64,000 nucleotides of DNA from Polyangia bacterium (GTDB lineage Bacteria > Myxococcota_A > Polyangia > Fen-1088): the NCBI GenBank assembly GCA_036268875.1, contig DATATI010000066.1:124001-188000 (forward strand), given 5' to 3'. Below are positions 31,686-45,151 of the stretch, piece by piece. The notes under the pieces are model-generated. The model searched no databases and was not told where the DNA came from. It saw nothing but the letters and a program-made list of their open reading frames with translations. Every line of letters begins with the position of its first letter. Position 1 is the stretch's first letter. The translations under genes were made by a program, and so were the position numbers.

Positions 31686-33074
31686 CTATTCGTCCTTGGG
31701 ACGAAAGTCGTCGGCGTTCAGGTGGAATCGTTTCGCCCACCGATAGACCAAGGCCGGCTTGCGATCCAGCTCGCGCGCCACGCGCAGCATGTTGCCCTGA
31801 AACCGCCGCATCAGTTCTTCCAGCTCGACATTCGAAGGCGGCGGACGCGAGACGCGGCCCGACGACGAGAGGCGTGTTCGCCCCGACGCGGCCGAGATGG
31901 CCGCCGGCAGATGTTCGAGGCCGATCCGCTCCGCATCGCGCGACAACGCTTCGGCCGAGGTGACCACCTTGCCGAGCTCGCGCACATTGCCGGGCCACGC
32001 ATACACGCACAGCGCTTGAAACGCCCCCAGATCGAACGGCCGCCCGCGCGCACCGAGCAGGAACGCCGTCAGCGCGCCCAGGTCTTCCATGCGTTCGCGC
32101 AGCGGTGGAATGCGAATTGGCTCGGCGCCGAGGCGCGCGGCCAGATCGGCGCGCAGCCCGCCGACACCCGATTTTCCCGGCGGTGCCGTGCGGCTGGTCG
32201 CCGCCAGCACGCGCGTGTCGATGCGCCGCGGGCGCGTGCCACCCACCGGTACCAGCAGGCGATCTTGGGTGAAGCGCAACAATTTCGTTTGCAGTTCGGG
32301 CGCCATGTCGCCGATCTCGTCGAGAAACAGCGTGCCGCCCTCCGCGTCTTCGATGATTCCTGGCTTCGACGCCAGCGCCTGCGAGTGCGCGCCGCGCACG
32401 TAACCGAACAGTTCGCTTTCCACTAACTCGCGTGGCAGCGCCGCGCAATTCACCGCGACGAAGCGACCCTTTCTTCCGCTGGCCTCGTGAACAGCGTGCG
32501 CGTAGACTTCTTTCCCCACCCCGGTTTCACCGGTGAGCAAGATCTCCTCCCCGGCGGCTGCCAACTTACGGAGGTTGTTGCAGATGAGGGCAAACGAAGG
32601 GTTGGCGGTCGGCACCGGGCCCAGCGGAGCGGCGAACTCTGCTTTGATCGCCGCCAGCTCCGTGGCCGAGGCCATGCGAAAAACCGCCACGTGCGATCCG
32701 ATGAAGATCAGCGAACCATCGCGCAGCTTCACGCGTGGCTGCGCCACCGCTCCATCGACGACGGTGCCGTTGGTGCTGTTCAGATCGACCAGATCGTACC
32801 CGTCGCCGGCACGCAGGATCTGTGCGTGCTGGCCCGAGATCATGCGATCGGGAGCTGCCCACGACGCCGATCCCGGCTCCAGGTTGGTGATGTGGCGACG
32901 CCCCAGGCGCAGCAGGTTCTGGAACGTCACCACACGCTCGGTTGATTCCGGCAGCTCGCCGTTCACGTTGCCAAGGACGACCAGCAACGGTGTCTGCTTT
33001 GGTTCGCCGCGCCGGCGCTGGTTCGGAACCAGGGTGACGCTGTCTTTTGGCGTGATCACGATGGGCGCTCCCAT
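31686..33074 (-). CDS. FHA-domain AAA+ enhancer-binding-type regulator
   Basis: A 462-aa protein. The FHA domain (about 55-110: LGRRHITNLEPGSAS, RMISGQHAQIL, DLVDLNSTNGTVVDG) recognises phosphothreonine. The AAA+ core (about 160-370) has Walker A GETGVGKE at 182-189, Walker B GGTLFLDEIGD, and an arginine-finger region VGGTRPRRIDTRVLAATSR. The sigma-54 contact loop, normally GAFTGA, is GAHSQA at 228-233. A Fis-like helix-turn-helix ends the protein (RFQGNMLRVARELDRKPALV). ATG 33074 is chosen as the start of the conserved part; the frame extends 30 codons upstream without family similarity. It is divergent from a sigma-54-like promoter and secreted-peptide gene, and near a Ser/Thr kinase. Confidence 0.88.
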   Translation of the reverse strand: MGAPIVITPKDSVTLVPNQRRRGEPKQTPLLVVLGNVNGELPESTERVVTFQNLLRLGRRHITNLEPGSASWAAPDRMISGQHAQILRAGDGYDLVDLNSTNGTVVDGAVAQPRVKLRDGSLIFIGSHVAVFRMASATELAAIKAEFAAPLGPVPTANPSFALICNNLRKLAAAGEEILLTGETGVGKEVYAHAVHEASGRKGRFVAVNCAALPRELVESELFGYVRGAHSQALASKPGIIEDAEGGTLFLDEIGDMAPELQTKLLRFTQDRLLVPVGGTRPRRIDTRVLAATSRTAPPGKSGVGGLRADLAARLGAEPIRIPPLRERMEDLGALTAFLLGARGRPFDLGAFQALCVYAWPGNVRELGKVVTSAEALSRDAERIGLEHLPAAISAASGRTRLSSSGRVSRPPPSNVELEELMRRFQGNMLRVARELDRKPALVYRWAKRFHLNADDFRPKDE

Positions 33075-33135
33075 CCTCGCTCGTCCGCGTTGACCGCAAA
33101 GAGTTTTGTCACTGACACCAAGCTCTGCCTGCCAG

Positions 33136-33151
33136 CCGCGGAAGGCCGCGG
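33136..33151. promoter_or_regulatory. Inverted repeat, possible operator or enhancer
   Basis: CCGCGG-AAGG-CCGCGG: two self-complementary hexamers separated by four bases. It lies 18 bases upstream of the TGGC of the sigma-54-like promoter and 61 bases from the regulator's ATG. It is a plausible binding site for the divergent enhancer-binding protein, though closer than most sigma-54 enhancers. Confidence 0.4.
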
Positions 33152-33169
33152 ACCGACAGTCCAACTCAC

Positions 33170-33185
33170 TGGCTTCTACTTTGCT
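33170..33185 (+). promoter_or_regulatory. Candidate sigma-54 promoter for the secreted peptide gene
   Basis: TGGCTTCTACTTTGCT keeps the invariant GG and GC with exactly ten bases between them, and matches consensus TGGC at -24 and TTGCW at -12. The central ACG of TGGCACG is not kept. Transcription would start near 33196, giving a leader of about 90 bases before the ATG at 33288. It is adjacent to a divergently encoded enhancer-binding-type protein. Confidence 0.55.
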
Positions 33186-33201
33186 CTAACTCACTTTGCA
33201 A

Positions 33202-33252
33202 CGCGTTCGCGTGGTCGGCGCGTTCGCAAAGCAGACAAACGGACCGACCACG
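33202..33252 (+). other. Leader of the peptide gene: stem-loop and direct repeats
   Basis: CGTGGTCGG (33210-33218) and CCGACCACG (33244-33252) form a perfect nine-bp inverted repeat with a 25-base loop. CGCGTTCGC is directly repeated at 33202-33210 and 33219-33227. Both lie between the proposed transcription start and the peptide ATG, so the mRNA leader could fold. Function is unknown. Confidence 0.5.
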
Positions 33253-33287
33253 TCAACAACCAGCAACACGCAACCAGGGGGAATCAC

Positions 33288-33446
33288 ATGCTCAAGAAAA
33301 TCGCGCTCGGTGGAATCTTCGTCCTTGCTTCGGCCTTCAGCCTGTCGACGGTGGCAACGGCGGTGACCGGAAATCAAACGACGAAGACGATCAGCGCGCC
33401 CAAAGCGCCGGTGCCCCAGGGACTTTGCCCAGGAGGGCGCTGTTAG
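33288..33446 (+). CDS. Small secreted peptide with C-terminal CPGGRC (52 aa)
   Basis: A 52-aa protein. MLKKIALGGIFVLASAFSLS plus TVATA is a classic Sec signal peptide (two Lys, hydrophobic core, ATA cleavage site after residue 25). The predicted mature peptide is about 27 residues, rich in Thr, Pro and Lys, and ends LCPGGRC with Cys47 and Cys52 able to form a small ring. AGGGGGAA just before the ATG is one of the strongest ribosome binding sites in the window. No family is recognised. It has a sigma-54-like promoter and structured leader, and its stop overlaps the convergent kinase stop. A secreted signal or processed peptide is a reasonable guess, not shown. Confidence 0.65.
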   Translation: MLKKIALGGIFVLASAFSLSTVATAVTGNQTTKTISAPKAPVPQGLCPGGRC

Positions 33447-36031
33447 TGGGTCATGCCGGAGAGAACGCGTACTGACGAGTTCTCTGCCTTAACAATCCTG
33501 GCGCGGCCGAAAAATGGCGAGCTCCATTCTTCGGTATCGCGCCAGCATTCATTCGGGCCACCGATGGGCGGGGCTTTCTTTTCCCTTCCCGTCAGGTGAC
33601 CGGCAGCAAGATCGAACTCGGCCCAGTGACGTTCGCGGTCGGAGCCTTGATAAATCCACAGACGATCGGCCGCGGTCCAAATCGAGGGACAATCCGCGCG
33701 TGCCGGCCCGAGATCGCGATCGCTCTGACCGTCTGTTGAGATGACGTGAACTCGCGGGACGCCAATCTGGGTAACGTACGCGATCGAACGCCCATCGGGA
33801 GCGAGACGCGACCAAACCGGCAACAGGTTCTCGGTGCGCACCTCGTGACAATTCGTCGAGTCTCCGAGGCAGAGGACAATCGCTTTGGTCGAGAGCCGCA
33901 CGAAAACGAACGTTTTCCCATCCTCCGAAAACGACGGCGTGCGATCGTTCGGACCCTGCGAAGAAAACAGGGCTCGGCCGCTCGAATCGTATCCAACGGC
34001 AACCATTCCCCCATCGGCATTTCTCTTCCCAACAGCAACGTAACCAGACGCCGTGCGGTCAGTACTCCAGTTCTCACCATCGTTTGTGAACGAATGGTGG
34101 GCGCCGTCCGGTTCAACTAGCCATACGTCTCCAGAGATCCTGCGTGACAAGATTAGCCCCTGTCCGCTCACCCCTCGGATAAGACCGCGCACATCTGAAC
34201 CAGACACCGCGCCCAACTTGGAGGCCTCGCCTGAAGCCCAGTTCAGCTCGGCCAGATGCGATGAAGAAGGCGACGCCTCCACAGAAAACAGTAGACGCTG
34301 TGAAATCGGAGAGAAGGCGATCTGGAGCGAGCCCTTCGGCAATCCATACGTCACATTCGGTGCCGCGCCCGGCCAAGAGAAGATCGAGACGCTCACGTTC
34401 TCGTACTCATCGGCTCGCTTGATAGCGAAGGCGTTCTTGGTCTCGTTCACAACCATTCCCTGAATGAACCCCACACTGCCTGAGGTTGAATCATCAACGA
34501 GACTGAACATCGTCGTCGGCAGGTGGAAAACGGCGGCATGAGTGCCGTCAAGGTTGTAGAGAAACTCCGTCCCGTTGGCTAACCATTCGGGCGACGTTCC
34601 CCGTGTGATCGCTTTCGCCGAGGCGCCATTCGGTTGATCCGAAAGCATCACTTGCATAGCACCCGACGAATCGACCGCGGCAAAGAGCAACTTCTCGCCC
34701 TGTGGCGAGAGATCAGGGCAGCCATCCTGAAAGGTTTCGGGAAGCAGATCGGAAGGCGATCGATGGCCGGTCGTCGCATCTACGTTCTCGGCGACCCGAG
34801 GCGAGCCCCAGATAACCTGGGCGGATCTGCCATCGTGCGAGGCGGCGAAGCAATGCACTCGTCCCGAAAACTCGGCCAGCATCCGCGACTTTGACCAATC
34901 TTCCGGCACGCCCTCGGGAACCACGGTCCGCACGCGCGCGTTCGGCGTCAGCGTCGCCCAGGCGCCCGAGAACAGATTCCCCTTGGCGATCGCAATCGCC
35001 CCGACCGCCGCCACCACGACCGCCATCACCGACCAGCCTCGCCCTTCCCCGCGCGACTTCGCAGTTCGCCGCGCCGGCATGCGAGGTGACGACTCCCGCC
35101 CTGGCGTCAACAAGATCATGACGTCGATGGCGTTCGCCGGCCGCTGATCGGCGTGTTCAGCGGCGCAGCCGGCGCATACCTCAGCCAGCGTTCGTTCCAA
35201 ACGCGAGGCACACTTCCCCAGTGGCATCCGCAACTTGCGCTCCCCATCCACCACGTCCCACTCCGGCCGTTTGCCGAAGAGGATCTCGTGCATCGTCACG
35301 CCCAGCGCCCAGACGTCCGATCGGAAGCTGGCGGGATCGCCCATCACGATCTCCGGCGCCATGTACGACGGCGTTCCGACCAGCACGGTCACCGCCGCGG
35401 TCTGGGCGGGGTTGGTGGCCAGGCCGAAGTCGGACAGGACGATGCGGCCGTCTTCCATGCGCAGCAGGTTCTCGGGTTTGACGTCGCGGTGGATGATGCC
35501 GGCGGCGTGCAGCGCGGCCAGACCGGAGACGAGAGCGCGCGCGTCGGCCACCTTTTCGGCGAACGGGCGCGGCGGCGCGTCCGCTCGGACCGCGGCGCGC
35601 AGCGTGCCCTTGGTCGCCAGCTCCATCGACAGGAAACGGTGACCATCGGACTCACCGATGTCGAAGACGCGGCAGACGTTCGGATGCTGGATCTGCCGAC
35701 CCAGGCGCAGCTCGCGCGAAAACCTTTCGCCCCAGTGCGGATCGCTGGCCAGTTCTTGGCTGAGGACCTTCAACGCCACCGGCGCCTGGGTGATGCGATC
35801 GAACGCGCGCAGCACCACGCCGCTGCCGCCCTTGCCCACGTACGTCTCGACTTGATAGCGGCCGGCCAGGACGGTGCCGCGTTCGAGATCAATGGGTGGC
35901 TCGACCACGATCGGGTCGTCGCCCACGTCCGTGACGCTCACCTCACCGGCCACGCTGCCGCCTGAGGACTGAACGCTCGCCACCCACCTAGCCAAGGCCA
36001 TCTTCGCCGGCAGGAGCGTACCCTTTTTCAT
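33443..36031 (-). CDS. Transmembrane Ser/Thr protein kinase with beta-propeller sensor
   Basis: An 862-aa protein from ATG 36031; ATG 36001 and TTG 36043 are alternatives. The kinase domain covers about residues 50-310: glycine loop VGKGGSGVVLRAF, catalytic Lys in VALKVL, HRDVKPENLL, SDFGLAT, and GTPSYMAPEI. A helix near residue 335 (WSVMAVVVAAVGAIAIA) crosses the membrane. The C-terminal 500 residues are a TolB/WD-like propeller (CPDLSPQGEKLLFAAVDSSG, LQIAFSPISQRLLFSVEAS, SFSEDGKTFVFVRLS) outside the cytoplasm. Its DNA is lower in G+C than the kinase half. The phosphothreonine produced could be read by the FHA regulator nearby, which is inference. Confidence 0.9.
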   Translation of the reverse strand: MKKGTLLPAKMALARWVASVQSSGGSVAGEVSVTDVGDDPIVVEPPIDLERGTVLAGRYQVETYVGKGGSGVVLRAFDRITQAPVALKVLSQELASDPHWGERFSRELRLGRQIQHPNVCRVFDIGESDGHRFLSMELATKGTLRAAVRADAPPRPFAEKVADARALVSGLAALHAAGIIHRDVKPENLLRMEDGRIVLSDFGLATNPAQTAAVTVLVGTPSYMAPEIVMGDPASFRSDVWALGVTMHEILFGKRPEWDVVDGERKLRMPLGKCASRLERTLAEVCAGCAAEHADQRPANAIDVMILLTPGRESSPRMPARRTAKSRGEGRGWSVMAVVVAAVGAIAIAKGNLFSGAWATLTPNARVRTVVPEGVPEDWSKSRMLAEFSGRVHCFAASHDGRSAQVIWGSPRVAENVDATTGHRSPSDLLPETFQDGCPDLSPQGEKLLFAAVDSSGAMQVMLSDQPNGASAKAITRGTSPEWLANGTEFLYNLDGTHAAVFHLPTTMFSLVDDSTSGSVGFIQGMVVNETKNAFAIKRADEYENVSVSIFSWPGAAPNVTYGLPKGSLQIAFSPISQRLLFSVEASPSSSHLAELNWASGEASKLGAVSGSDVRGLIRGVSGQGLILSRRISGDVWLVEPDGAHHSFTNDGENWSTDRTASGYVAVGKRNADGGMVAVGYDSSGRALFSSQGPNDRTPSFSEDGKTFVFVRLSTKAIVLCLGDSTNCHEVRTENLLPVWSRLAPDGRSIAYVTQIGVPRVHVISTDGQSDRDLGPARADCPSIWTAADRLWIYQGSDRERHWAEFDLAAGHLTGREKKAPPIGGPNECWRDTEEWSSPFFGRARIVKAENSSVRVLSGMTH

Positions 36032-42092: not shown

Positions 42093-43631
42093 ATGGAACC
42101 GAGCAAGCTGACCAAACGCTGCGCAGTGTGCGGGCTGCGCTTTGAAGCGTCCGCTTTGATGTGCGCGACGGACGCCCGGCCTTTGGGCCCCGAAGATCCC
42201 AGCGCGGCGGAGCTGGGCAATTACCGTCTCATCCAGCGCATCGGCGAGGGCGGCATGGGCGCGGTCTATCGCGCCGTCCACCGCAAGCTGGATCGAACCG
42301 TGGCGATCAAGGTTCTGCAGCGCGACCTGACCAACGAGCCGGGCTTCATCAACCGCTTTTTTCACGAGGCGCGTGCCGCCAATACCGTCCGCCACCCACA
42401 CGTCATCGAGGTCTATGACTTCGTCGAGGCCGGCCGCGACATCTACTTCGTCATGGAATACCTGCGCGGCGAGGATCTGCACGACGCCATCCATCGCCGC
42501 GACGGCACGCCGATGACCATCGAACGAGCGGTGTCGATCCTGGAACAGGTCGCCTCCGGCCTGCACGCCACCCATACCCGCGAGATCATCCACCGCGACA
42601 TCAAGCCCGAGAACATCTTTCTGGCCGAGAAAATCGGTGTCCGCGACTTCGTGAAGATCTTCGACTTCGGCGTGGCCAAGCTGGATCGCCCGGACGGCCG
42701 CCTGACCGTCGAGGGCGCGGTGCTGGGCACGCCCGAGTACATGTCGCCCGAGCAGGCCCGCGGCCAACCCATCGACGGTCGGTCAGACATTTATTCGCTG
42801 GGCTGCGTGGCGTACGAAATGTTCAGCCGGCAGCATCTCTTTCGCGGCCGCACCCAGGTCGAGATTCTGTCGGCGCAGATCCACCAGCAACCGGTCCCGC
42901 TGCGCCAGCTGGTGCCGACCATTCCAGCGGCGCTGGACGACGCGGTTCTGAGCGCGCTGGCCAAATCGCCTGACGCCCGCCCGCAAACCGCCCTCGCCTT
43001 CGCCGAACTTTTGACCAGGGCCATCGGCCGCGGGCTGGCCGACAGCAGCGCCTTCACCGGCGCCCGCCGCGGGCCCACTCGCCCCACCCCCACCACCGGC
43101 CTTCTGTTGCGGGCCAGCGAAAACCGATCGAAGGCCTGGCGGCCGGTGGCGCTGGCGGCGATGGCGATGACGCTGCTGACCGGCGCGATGGTGTTGGGCA
43201 AGCGTGGCTCGGTCCGCGATGGCGTCCGGGGGCCGGCTCTGCCGACCACCGCCATCGTCCCGACCGCGGTGCCCGCAGCCCCACAGAAACCAACCGGCGC
43301 CGGGGCGCTGGAAGCGTTGACCACCATCACCTTGCAGTCCGAGCCGCCAGGCGCCGACGTCATCACCACGGAGGGTCAGCAACTGGGCGTCACGCCGTAC
43401 CGCCTGATGGTTCGGGCCGGCGGCGAGCAGCAGGTGCGGCTGCAGAAATCGGGATATCGGCCGATCGAGCGACGGTTCGGCACCCGCAGCGACGCCACCA
43501 TCGCCGTCCGTCTGGTGCCGATCGCCCCAGAAAACCGGGGGCCGCACCACCGCGAACGACCGGACACCGAAGCGGCAACACGATCCGCCCTGGACTCCCC
43601 GGCAGGGACGATCGATCCTTTCGGTAGATGA
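42093..43631 (+). CDS. Ser/Thr protein kinase with zinc-ribbon-like N-terminus and PEGA tail
   Basis: A 512-aa protein. The N-terminus CAVCGLRFEASALMCATD looks like a small zinc ribbon. The kinase domain (about 45-305) has IGEGGMGAVYRAVHRKLDRT, VAIKVL, HRDIKPENIFLA, KIFDFGVAKL and GTPEYMSPEQARG. A helix near residue 355 (PVALAAMAMTLLTGAMVLG) crosses the membrane. A C-terminal PEGA domain (SEPPGADVITTEGQQLGVTP) is external. Eukaryote-like kinases of this form are common in Myxococcota. Its stop overlaps the ATG of a second kinase (ATGA). TAGGAT at 42065-42070 may be a -10 element. Confidence 0.93.
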   Translation: MEPSKLTKRCAVCGLRFEASALMCATDARPLGPEDPSAAELGNYRLIQRIGEGGMGAVYRAVHRKLDRTVAIKVLQRDLTNEPGFINRFFHEARAANTVRHPHVIEVYDFVEAGRDIYFVMEYLRGEDLHDAIHRRDGTPMTIERAVSILEQVASGLHATHTREIIHRDIKPENIFLAEKIGVRDFVKIFDFGVAKLDRPDGRLTVEGAVLGTPEYMSPEQARGQPIDGRSDIYSLGCVAYEMFSRQHLFRGRTQVEILSAQIHQQPVPLRQLVPTIPAALDDAVLSALAKSPDARPQTALAFAELLTRAIGRGLADSSAFTGARRGPTRPTPTTGLLLRASENRSKAWRPVALAAMAMTLLTGAMVLGKRGSVRDGVRGPALPTTAIVPTAVPAAPQKPTGAGALEALTTITLQSEPPGADVITTEGQQLGVTPYRLMVRAGGEQQVRLQKSGYRPIERRFGTRSDATIAVRLVPIAPENRGPHHRERPDTEAATRSALDSPAGTIDPFGR

Positions 43632-45151
43632 GCGGCACCATCCCCGGAGTCCCTGCGGATCCGGCTGACCTGCAGGAACGACTGGCGCGCGAGCGTCTGG
43701 CGGCGGAGCCCAAACCCGGGAACCGCATCGGCGCCTATCGCCTGCTGCGTCTCCTGGGCCAGGGCACCACCGGCCGCGTCTTCGAGGTCGAGCACCAGCG
43801 CATCGGCCGGCGCGCGGCCATGAAGACGTTGGCCGCCGAGGCCGCCGTCCGCAAGGAGGCGGTCAAACGCCTGTTCGCCGAGGCGATGGCCGTCAACCGC
43901 ATCAACCACCCGCACATCGTTGAGATCACCGACGTCGTCGAGGGCGGTGTGCACCTGGTCGTCGACGCTGGCGGCCGCGAATCCATCGCCCCACAAAAAG
44001 TGAACGCCCTGGTGATGGAGCTTCTGGAAGGCCAATCGCTGGCCAAGGCGATGGCTCACGACGGTCTGCTGCCGGCGGAGCGGTTCTTGCCCATCTTGGC
44101 CCAGGTGTGCGAGGCGCTGGCGGCGGCTCACGCGGTCGGGTTCGTCCACCGCGACCTTAAACCGGACAACATCTTTCTCATCGAGCGCGACGGCCAGGCG
44201 GACTTCGTCAAGCTGCTGGACTTCGGCCTGGCCAAGGTGGTGAAGGTCGATCTGGACAAGAGCAATCCGTCGCTGCAGACGCTGGACGGCACCTTCCTGG
44301 GCACGCCGGCCTACGCCTCGCCCGAGCAGGCGTCGGGCAAACGCATCGGACACCAGACCGACGTCTATTCGGTGGGCGTGGTGCTGTACGAACTGATCAG
44401 CGGTCGCCTGCCGTTCCAGGGCAGCTCGATCGCCGATTTCATTCTGCAGCACCTGAACGCGCCGCCGCCACCCTTGCCCCAGGACATCGTCTCCACCAGC
44501 CTCGGCCGCACGCTGGACGCGGTGGTGCATCGCTGCCTGGAGAAAAATCCGGCCGAACGATTTCAGGCCGCCCAGCTGGCGGAGATCTTCTGGTCGCTGT
44601 CGCGCGGGCAAAGCGTGCGCTTCAGCATTCGCGAGGACTACCGCTCGCCCACGCACATCGCGCCGTCGCCGCGCAAACGGCTGGGCACGCAGATCGCCTG
44701 GGGACTGGGCGTGGGCCTGACCGCCGCGTTGATCAGCGCCGGCGTGGTCAGCCAGTTCCGCGGCCGTCACGGGCGCCCGAACACCGCCGCGGCCCGCAGC
44801 GAGATCGCCCCGCCCCTCGCTGGCCGAGCGGCGACCAGCAGCGGCGCCGCCGAAAGCGTGGCCGCGCCGGCGCAGGTGACCATCTCGTTCGATTCAGATC
44901 CCCCGGGTGCCGAGGTGCGCGTGGTCGGCAACGACACCATCCTCGGCGTCACGCCGTTCGTGCACCGGTTCGTCAAACAGGATCAAGCGATCGAGATCGA
45001 GCTGCGCGCCGCTGGCTACGAGGCCAGCCACCTGACGCTGTCCCTGGGCGTCAGCCGCACCGTCAGCGCCACGATGAACCGATCCGTCGCCCGTCGGCGC
45101 GCCGTTCCGCGCGAGCTGGAACGCGAATCGACCATCGATCCGTTCCATTAG
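43628..45151 (+). CDS. Ser/Thr protein kinase with PEGA tail
   Basis: A 507-aa protein coupled to the preceding kinase. Kinase motifs are LGQGTTGRVFEVEHQRIGRR, AMKTLAAEAA, HRDLKPDNIFLIERDG, KLLDFGLAKV and GTPAYASPEQASG. A transmembrane helix near residue 360 (IAWGLGVGLTAALISAGVVS) and an external PEGA domain (FDSDPPGAEVRVVGNDTILG) follow. The glycine loop ends GTTG rather than the common GGMG. The paired arrangement suggests the two kinases share a signal or phosphorylate each other, which is inference. Confidence 0.92.
   Translation: MSGTIPGVPADPADLQERLARERLAAEPKPGNRIGAYRLLRLLGQGTTGRVFEVEHQRIGRRAAMKTLAAEAAVRKEAVKRLFAEAMAVNRINHPHIVEITDVVEGGVHLVVDAGGRESIAPQKVNALVMELLEGQSLAKAMAHDGLLPAERFLPILAQVCEALAAAHAVGFVHRDLKPDNIFLIERDGQADFVKLLDFGLAKVVKVDLDKSNPSLQTLDGTFLGTPAYASPEQASGKRIGHQTDVYSVGVVLYELISGRLPFQGSSIADFILQHLNAPPPPLPQDIVSTSLGRTLDAVVHRCLEKNPAERFQAAQLAEIFWSLSRGQSVRFSIREDYRSPTHIAPSPRKRLGTQIAWGLGVGLTAALISAGVVSQFRGRHGRPNTAAARSEIAPPLAGRAATSSGAAESVAAPAQVTISFDSDPPGAEVRVVGNDTILGVTPFVHRFVKQDQAIEIELRAAGYEASHLTLSLGVSRTVSATMNRSVARRRAVPRELERESTIDPFH

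What the first reader, a model, noticed from the sequence alone, without database searches (positions are those of the whole stretch)
31686..36031. Candidate phospho-signalling circuit controlling a secreted 52-aa peptide
Seen: an FHA/AAA+ enhancer-binding-type regulator (31686-33074, minus), a sigma-54-like promoter (33170-33185) and inverted repeats, a 52-aa peptide with a Sec signal and C-terminal CPGGRC (33288-33446), and a convergent transmembrane Ser/Thr kinase with external beta-propeller (33443-36031). Known: FHA domains bind phosphothreonine, and enhancer-binding proteins activate sigma-54 promoters. Inference: the kinase senses an external cue, the FHA regulator reads the phosphorylation, and the peptide is the output. 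I know of no described system with this composition.
Basis: partly seen in the sequence, partly recalled or inferred. Interest (0 to 1): 0.75.

Follow-up and report, generated by a model that had tools for sequence, protein, structure and literature searches.

The report
Kinase-regulator locus with secreted Cys-loop peptide
Next to a membrane sensor kinase and the gene-switch protein it probably controls, five related bacterial genomes keep a tiny gene for a secreted peptide with a small cysteine loop; the arrangement is real and conserved, and the peptide could be either the circuit's product or the signal that the kinase senses.

Summary
In detail: the three genes, the -24/-12 site and the inverted repeats are where stated. 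Relatives strengthen it. Five genomes from three genera of one family (in one the kinase is cut by a contig end) carry kinase, FHA regulator and peptide in the same order. The peptide was found nowhere else in 318 genomes of the class; twelve other family members have the neighbouring zincin gene but no regulator, kinase or peptide beside it. All five peptides start MLKKIA, have a Sec signal, and are predicted to mature to 15-27 basic residues with a C-terminal C-x4-6-C. All five upstream regions carry TGG-N8-TTGCT (at most 0.35% of shuffles do) and a leader stem-loop of differing sequence. Against the simple reading, the regulator has GAHSQA where sigma-54 activators have GAFTGA; yet a second locus with this regulator subtype also sits beside a conserved sigma-54-type promoter. 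The kinase's outer domain has diverged much faster than its kinase domain, more so than in a peptide-free paralogous pair of the same genomes. Best reading: a Ser/Thr-kinase-to-FHA-activator circuit (PknH-EmbR-like) that switches on the peptide through sigma-54. A peptide-to-kinase feedback loop is possible but unproven.

The parts
33288..33446 (+). 52-aa secreted peptide gene: Sec signal about residues 1-25 (33288-33362), mature part about 27 aa (33363-33443) ending CPGGRC (33426-33443)
   Evidence: five orthologues, no family in Pfam, NCBIfam or PDB sequences; cleavage site assigned by eye at A-x-A
33170..33185 (+). sigma-54-type -24/-12 promoter TGGCTTCTACTTTGCT (GG-N10-GC)
   Evidence: present in 5 of 5 orthologous upstream regions, 86-148 nt before the start codon; at most 0.35% of shuffles each
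33196..33287 (+). predicted leader of the peptide mRNA; stem arms 33209-33218 and 33244-33253
   Evidence: stem-loop in all five leaders with different sequence; z -1.1 to -2.2; start of transcription inferred from the -12 element
33136..33151 (.). palindrome CCGCGG-N4-CCGCGG upstream of the promoter; possible activator site, not conserved
   Evidence: four relatives instead share an ACCGGAAC element about 95 bp upstream
31686..33074 (-). FHA plus AAA+ regulator, 462 aa; FHA 32697-32909, AAA+ 32124-32603, HTH about 31725-31823 (assigned by eye)
   Evidence: FHA signature residues, Walker A and Walker B kept in all five orthologues
32376..32393 (-). GAHSQA in place of GAFTGA (sigma-54 contact loop)
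   Evidence: invariant in five orthologues, GAHS[QT]A in the paralogous subfamily; 27 readable loops of other activators of the genome are GAFTGA, GSFTGA, GAFTDA or GAYTGA
33024..33044 (-). N-terminal tail motif DSVTLVP of the regulator (candidate phosphothreonine site)
   Evidence: S-x-T-x-V-P invariant in five orthologues; role inferred
33443..36031 (-). transmembrane Ser/Thr kinase, 862 aa; kinase domain 35258-35857, membrane helix about 34976-35032, outer beta-propeller region 33446-34966
   Evidence: catalytic residues intact (HRDxKPxN, DFG, APE)
35924..35941 (-). VSVTDV in the kinase N-terminal tail; S-x-T-x-V invariant in four kinase orthologues, same pattern as in the regulator tail
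   Evidence: unbiased tail-to-tail comparison not significant, so a lead only

Best explanation
The locus is a signalling module. A membrane Ser/Thr kinase with an outer beta-propeller senses something outside the inner membrane and phosphorylates threonines, probably in its own tail and in the N-terminal tail (S-x-T-x-V-P) of the neighbouring FHA/AAA+ regulator. The FHA domain reads the phosphothreonine, which changes docking or ring assembly of the regulator. The regulator then drives the divergent sigma-54-type promoter, whose transcript carries a leader stem-loop (perhaps stabilising) and encodes a small secreted basic peptide with a C-terminal cysteine loop. Shown: gene content, order, conservation as a unit, promoter and leader conservation, intact kinase and FHA residues. 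Inferred: who phosphorylates what, that this regulator is the one acting on this promoter, and that it can use sigma-54 despite GAHSQA.
For: Trio conserved in five genomes of three genera at one syntenic place (arginase, zincin-TPR and DNA polymerase III delta on the regulator side). Peptide family only there among 318 genomes of the class (the four extra weak hits are about the number expected by chance). Twelve other family genomes have the zincin gene but no such module beside it. Promoter in 5 of 5 and RpoN in 18 of 18 family genomes. A second regulator of the same GAHS type (G000:C88, G007:C55, G002:C2) lies with a kinase and a lipoprotein gene that has a conserved -24/-12 site 28-42 nt before its start, with two TGTTGCGCAACA-like palindromes about 100 bp apart upstream in two genomes. 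Most GAHSxA regulators fetched lie beside or near a kinase gene. Precedent: PknH phosphorylates the FHA transcription factor EmbR and the FHA domain is needed (PMC4601284).
Against: GAHSQA differs from GAFTGA at Phe, Thr and the second Gly; in tested activators changes at Phe and Thr mostly abolish sigma-54 activation and in PspF only Tyr replaces Phe (PMC3162934; PMC2941729). No shared upstream activator site in all five (the ACCGGAAC element is missing in the window genome). The intergenic stretches of the C10-type regulator-kinase pairs show no obvious -24/-12 site. No transcript or phosphorylation data.
Confidence: 0.5

Rival explanations
1. Autocrine peptide signalling: the mature Cys-loop peptide is the ligand of the kinase's outer propeller. 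Secreted peptide accumulates, activates (or inhibits) its neighbour kinase, and the regulator adjusts peptide synthesis, giving density or self sensing with lineage-specific peptide-receptor pairs.
For: Peptide never found without the kinase. Outer domain 29-37% identical between orthologues against 60-76% for the kinase domain and 65-69% to the window copy for the regulator. For G001-G011, of one genus, the outer domain is 37% while the kinase domain is 75%; the peptide-free C10 pair in the same two genomes keeps 65% and 82%; for G001-G007, 53% (last 207 aa only) against 84%. Mature peptide also hypervariable apart from the terminal cysteines. Foldseek neighbours include LRP6 tandem propellers, some bound to Dkk1 or disulfide-constrained peptides, an analogy only.
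Against: Fast divergence of a sensor domain also follows from a changing external cue; five genomes are too few for a co-variation test; propeller model of low confidence; no published peptide-sensing Hanks kinase turned up in the search made, which is weak either way.
Confidence: 0.2
2. The regulator does not work through sigma-54. Like TyrR, DhaR or VpsR it has lost the contact loop and acts as a repressor or with another sigma factor; the conserved -24/-12 site is driven by a canonical activator encoded elsewhere, possibly with the GAHS-type protein as a modulating partner in mixed rings.
For: GAHS[QT]A in all orthologues and the close paralogues, while the other readable activators of the genome keep GAFTGA-like loops; literature on loop changes; no obvious -24/-12 site between the divergent C10-type pair.
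Against: Two separate GAHS-type loci sit next to conserved sigma-54-type promoters, which would be a coincidence if the regulators had nothing to do with sigma-54; ATPase motifs fully kept.
Confidence: 0.25
3. The peptide is an effector (small cationic antimicrobial or envelope-active peptide) released when the kinase senses envelope stress or other cells; kinase sensing has nothing to do with the peptide itself. This is a version of the best explanation in which the output acts on other cells or on the envelope.
For: Mature peptides are 15-27 aa with net charge +2 to +4 and two to four cysteines; sigma-54 regulons have been argued to concern the cell exterior (PMC3162934).
Against: No similarity to any family in the libraries searched; no recognised immunity or dedicated export gene at the locus.
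Confidence: 0.25

Closest known systems
PknH-EmbR of Mycobacterium tuberculosis (PMC4601284)
   Same: Membrane Ser/Thr kinase with an outer sensor domain and a transcription factor that carries an FHA domain needed for its phosphorylation; target sites there were predicted by likeness to the kinase's own phosphosite, as the shared S-x-T-x-V pattern may suggest here.
   Different: EmbR is a SARP-type regulator without AAA+ domain; its targets are arabinosyltransferase genes; the PknH sensor is not described as a propeller; no secreted peptide.
FHA-domain sigma-54 enhancer-binding proteins of Myxococcus xanthus (Jelsbak 2005, cited in PMC12288465; text not held)
   Same: FHA plus AAA+ sigma-54 activator architecture; proposed link to Ser/Thr kinases (own knowledge).
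   Different: Here the contact loop is GAHSQA and the regulator is tied by synteny to one kinase and one secreted peptide; the loop of the Myxococcus proteins was not examined here.
GarA/OdhI phospho-switch (PMC12321487)
   Same: Threonine motif N-terminal to an FHA domain, phosphorylated by Ser/Thr kinases and read by the same FHA domain.
   Different: GarA has no AAA+ or DNA-binding domain and controls enzymes, not promoters; phosphorylation of the tail is only inferred here.
Gram-positive peptide pheromone circuits (Agr, ComC/ComD; own knowledge)
   Same: Small secreted peptide gene beside a membrane kinase and its regulator; variable peptide and variable sensor.
   Different: Those use histidine kinases and response regulators; a ligand role is not shown here.

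Membership tests
sigma-54 enhancer-binding proteins | AAA+ domain with Walker A and B of the Sigma54_activat family | tested here: met
   Pfam PF00158 E 2.4e-47; GETGVGKE and GTLFLDEIG kept
sigma-54 enhancer-binding proteins | GAFTGA contact loop | tested here: not met
   GAHSQA in all five orthologues; so described as activator-like, not filed as a proven member
sigma-54 enhancer-binding proteins | activates a -24/-12 promoter | tested here: inconclusive
   conserved adjacent site in 5 of 5; activation itself not testable here
sigma-54 promoters | GG-N10-GC with TGG and TTGC | tested here: met
   5 of 5 upstream regions
Hanks-type Ser/Thr kinases | P-loop, catalytic Lys, HRDxKPxN, DFG, APE | tested here: met
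   all invariant in four orthologues
FHA phosphothreonine readers | GR, S-x2-H and NGT signature residues | tested here: met
   G58 R59, S80, H83, N102 G103 T104 invariant in five orthologues; binding itself not testable
kinase-to-FHA transcription factor pairs (PknH-EmbR like) | kinase phosphorylates the regulator in an FHA-dependent way | not testable with these tools
   needs protein work
secreted peptide pheromones | signal peptide and small mature product | tested here: met
   five orthologues, predicted mature part 15-27 aa
secreted peptide pheromones | neighbouring kinase binds the peptide | not testable with these tools
   only fast divergence of the outer domain seen

The most novel reading that the evidence does not exclude
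An autocrine circuit in a Gram-negative-type bacterium in which a ribosomal Cys-loop peptide is the ligand of a beta-propeller Hanks kinase, relayed by an FHA activator whose sigma-54 contact loop (GAHSQA) breaks the GAFTGA rule but still works.
Probability: 0.17. Interest if true: 0.87.

Novelty: new variant of a known kind. Interest (0 to 1): 0.6.

Why it matters
External ligands of bacterial Ser/Thr kinases are mostly unknown; here a small secreted peptide is tied to one kinase by conserved synteny, which makes a ligand-or-output question directly testable. The GAHS-type regulators are also a natural test of whether sigma-54 can be worked without GAFTGA, since two different GAHS-type loci sit beside conserved -24/-12 promoters.

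Tried and rejected
Peptide as chance ORF: rejected (five orthologues, third-position bias). Promoter as chance match: rejected. Known peptide or RNA family: none. Peptide in other families of the class: only chance-level hits. Shared tail motif of kinase and regulator as proof of a substrate relation: an unbiased comparison gave p 0.10-0.43 for the four pairs, and in the window genome picked another stretch, so kept only as a lead. Common activator site: found in four genomes, not in the window genome. GAFTGA in G008's copy of the regulator: seen only in the last bases of a contig, judged a probable contig-end artefact, not resolved. Named relatives: the one scan of named genomes gave activators at 35-52% identity in the best segment, none with a GAHS loop, so the organism could not be named.
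Full report
What is there. The window lies in G000:C66 (6.15 Mb draft genome in 95 contigs). The three genes are as described: FHA/AAA+ regulator 31686-33074 minus, peptide 33288-33446 plus, kinase 33443-36031 minus. Kinase and regulator point the same way, with the peptide gene between them on the other strand; its stop codon overlaps the kinase's stop codon. The far side of the regulator holds arginase, a TPR-zincin protein and DNA polymerase III delta.

Conservation. The regulator's orthologues (65-69% identity to the window copy) in G001:C12, G003:C272, G007:C499 and G011:C462 all have a peptide gene in the same place and orientation and a kinase beyond it (in G007 only the last 207 residues of the kinase are on the contig). 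The peptides share MLKKIA, a hydrophobic stretch, an A-x-A cleavage-like site, and two cysteines near the end; invariant columns are M1 L2 K3 K4 I5 A6 F11 P43 C47 C52. Predicted mature parts: VTGNQTTKTISAPKAPVPQGLCPGGRC, RTAGTHSAKKAPVLSAPQGFCPNGIRC, RTAAKKAPVPAAPQGFCFPQGMPC, RTTVPHRLCPIAACV, AKPSLQSVPSVGAPVMKGFRCACCGC (cut sites chosen by eye). Between G007 and G001 changes fall 7, 8 and 20 on the three codon positions. A profile of the five found no further convincing member in 318 genomes of the class. Twelve other family genomes hold the zincin gene but no regulator, kinase or peptide next to it. So the trio behaves as a unit, restricted to part of one family.

Promoter and leader. All five upstream regions hold TGG-N8-TTGCT, i.e. 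GG-N10-GC, 86-148 nt before the start codon; in dinucleotide shuffles of each region this happens in 0 to 0.35%. RpoN is present in all 18 family genomes. Each leader forms a strong stem-loop though the stem sequences differ (z -1.1, -1.7, -2.1, -2.2, -2.2); no Rfam match. Three genomes share GGTTTTAAAACCGGAAC or a near form about 95 bp upstream and G003 has a palindrome with the same ACCGGA half-site, but the window genome does not.

The regulator's loop. The position of GAFTGA reads GAHSQA in all five and GAHS[QT]A in the close paralogues of this family. The genome has 48 strong Sigma54_activat matches; of the 30 best, 27 loops could be read and all were GAFTGA, GSFTGA, GAFTDA or GAYTGA. In the 80 named-genome hits no GAHS loop was seen. 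Published work says that changes at Phe and Thr mostly abolish sigma-54 activation (PMC3162934) and that in PspF only Tyr can replace Phe (PMC2941729). Against that stands a second GAHS-type locus: in G000:C88, G007:C55 and G002:C2 a large lipoprotein gene near the regulator and a kinase has TGGCCTTCTTCTTGCT, TGGCCTCCTTATTGCG and TGGTGACGTTCTTGCA 28-42 nt before its start, and in the first two genomes two TGTTGCGCAACA-like palindromes lie about 100 bp apart upstream, a usual arrangement for activator sites. The C10-type divergent regulator-kinase pairs show no such site between their genes.

Signalling chemistry. Kinase residues are intact and the FHA signature is kept. The otherwise variable N-terminal tails of both proteins contain an invariant S-x-T-x-V (regulators DSVTLVP, ESVTFVP, ESITFVP, ESTTFVP, DSVTMVP; kinases VSVTDV, DSVTEV, ESVTGV, DSITQV). 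A comparison without choosing the motif beforehand was not significant, so this is a lead. It resembles GarA (phosphothreonine motif before an FHA domain, PMC12321487) and PknH-EmbR (PMC4601284).

Divergence of the sensor. The outer domain is 29-37% identical between orthologues while the kinase domain is 60-76%. In the peptide-free C10 pair the same two genomes G001 and G011 have 65% and 82% (here 37% and 75%), and G001-G007 has 84% for the outer domain (here 53% over the last 207 residues). The regulator, in contrast, is well kept. This pattern fits a receptor that changes together with its peptide but also a receptor tracking a changing outside cue. The outer domain was modelled with low confidence (pLDDT 65, pTM 0.49) as all-beta blades, and its PDB neighbours are mostly tandem propellers.

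Verdict. Observation confirmed; interpretation partly supported. I think a kinase-to-FHA-regulator circuit controlling the peptide through sigma-54 is most likely (about 0.5), with the sigma-54 step the least certain, and a peptide ligand role possible (about 0.2; the rivals overlap and need not sum to one). All conclusions rest on draft genomes of one family and on no experiments.

Noticed in passing
L062:1289-1304, L063:910-925, L064:1738-1753 (also L060:8126-8141): A near-consensus sigma-54-type site (TGGCAC-N5-GTTGC or close) lies about 28-31 nt before a gene that by eye looks like radC, near the C10-type regulator-kinase pairs.
   Followed up: no
L058:8963-9154 (G002:C3): A paralogous regulator-kinase pair has an unrelated 63-aa small gene without a Sec signal in the same position and orientation, also overlapping the kinase stop codon.
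   Followed up: partly
L241:2100-2430, L243:2420-2740, L244:5120-5440: GAHS-type locus with a large lipoprotein (CxxCH motifs) behind a conserved -24/-12 site; paired TGTTGCGCAACA-like palindromes upstream in two genomes.
   Followed up: partly
L052:2483-9021 (G001:C12): Beside the peptide locus, a second GAHS-type regulator and a second kinase-like gene in tandem (kinase-domain identity to the first 50%, outer domain 27%), suggesting local duplication.
   Followed up: partly
window 42093-45151: Two further Ser/Thr kinase genes in tandem; this genome seems rich in such kinases.
   Followed up: no
L193:3250-3355 (G008:C312): The regulator fragment at the contig end reads GAFTGA, unlike all orthologues; probably a contig-end artefact.
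   Followed up: partly
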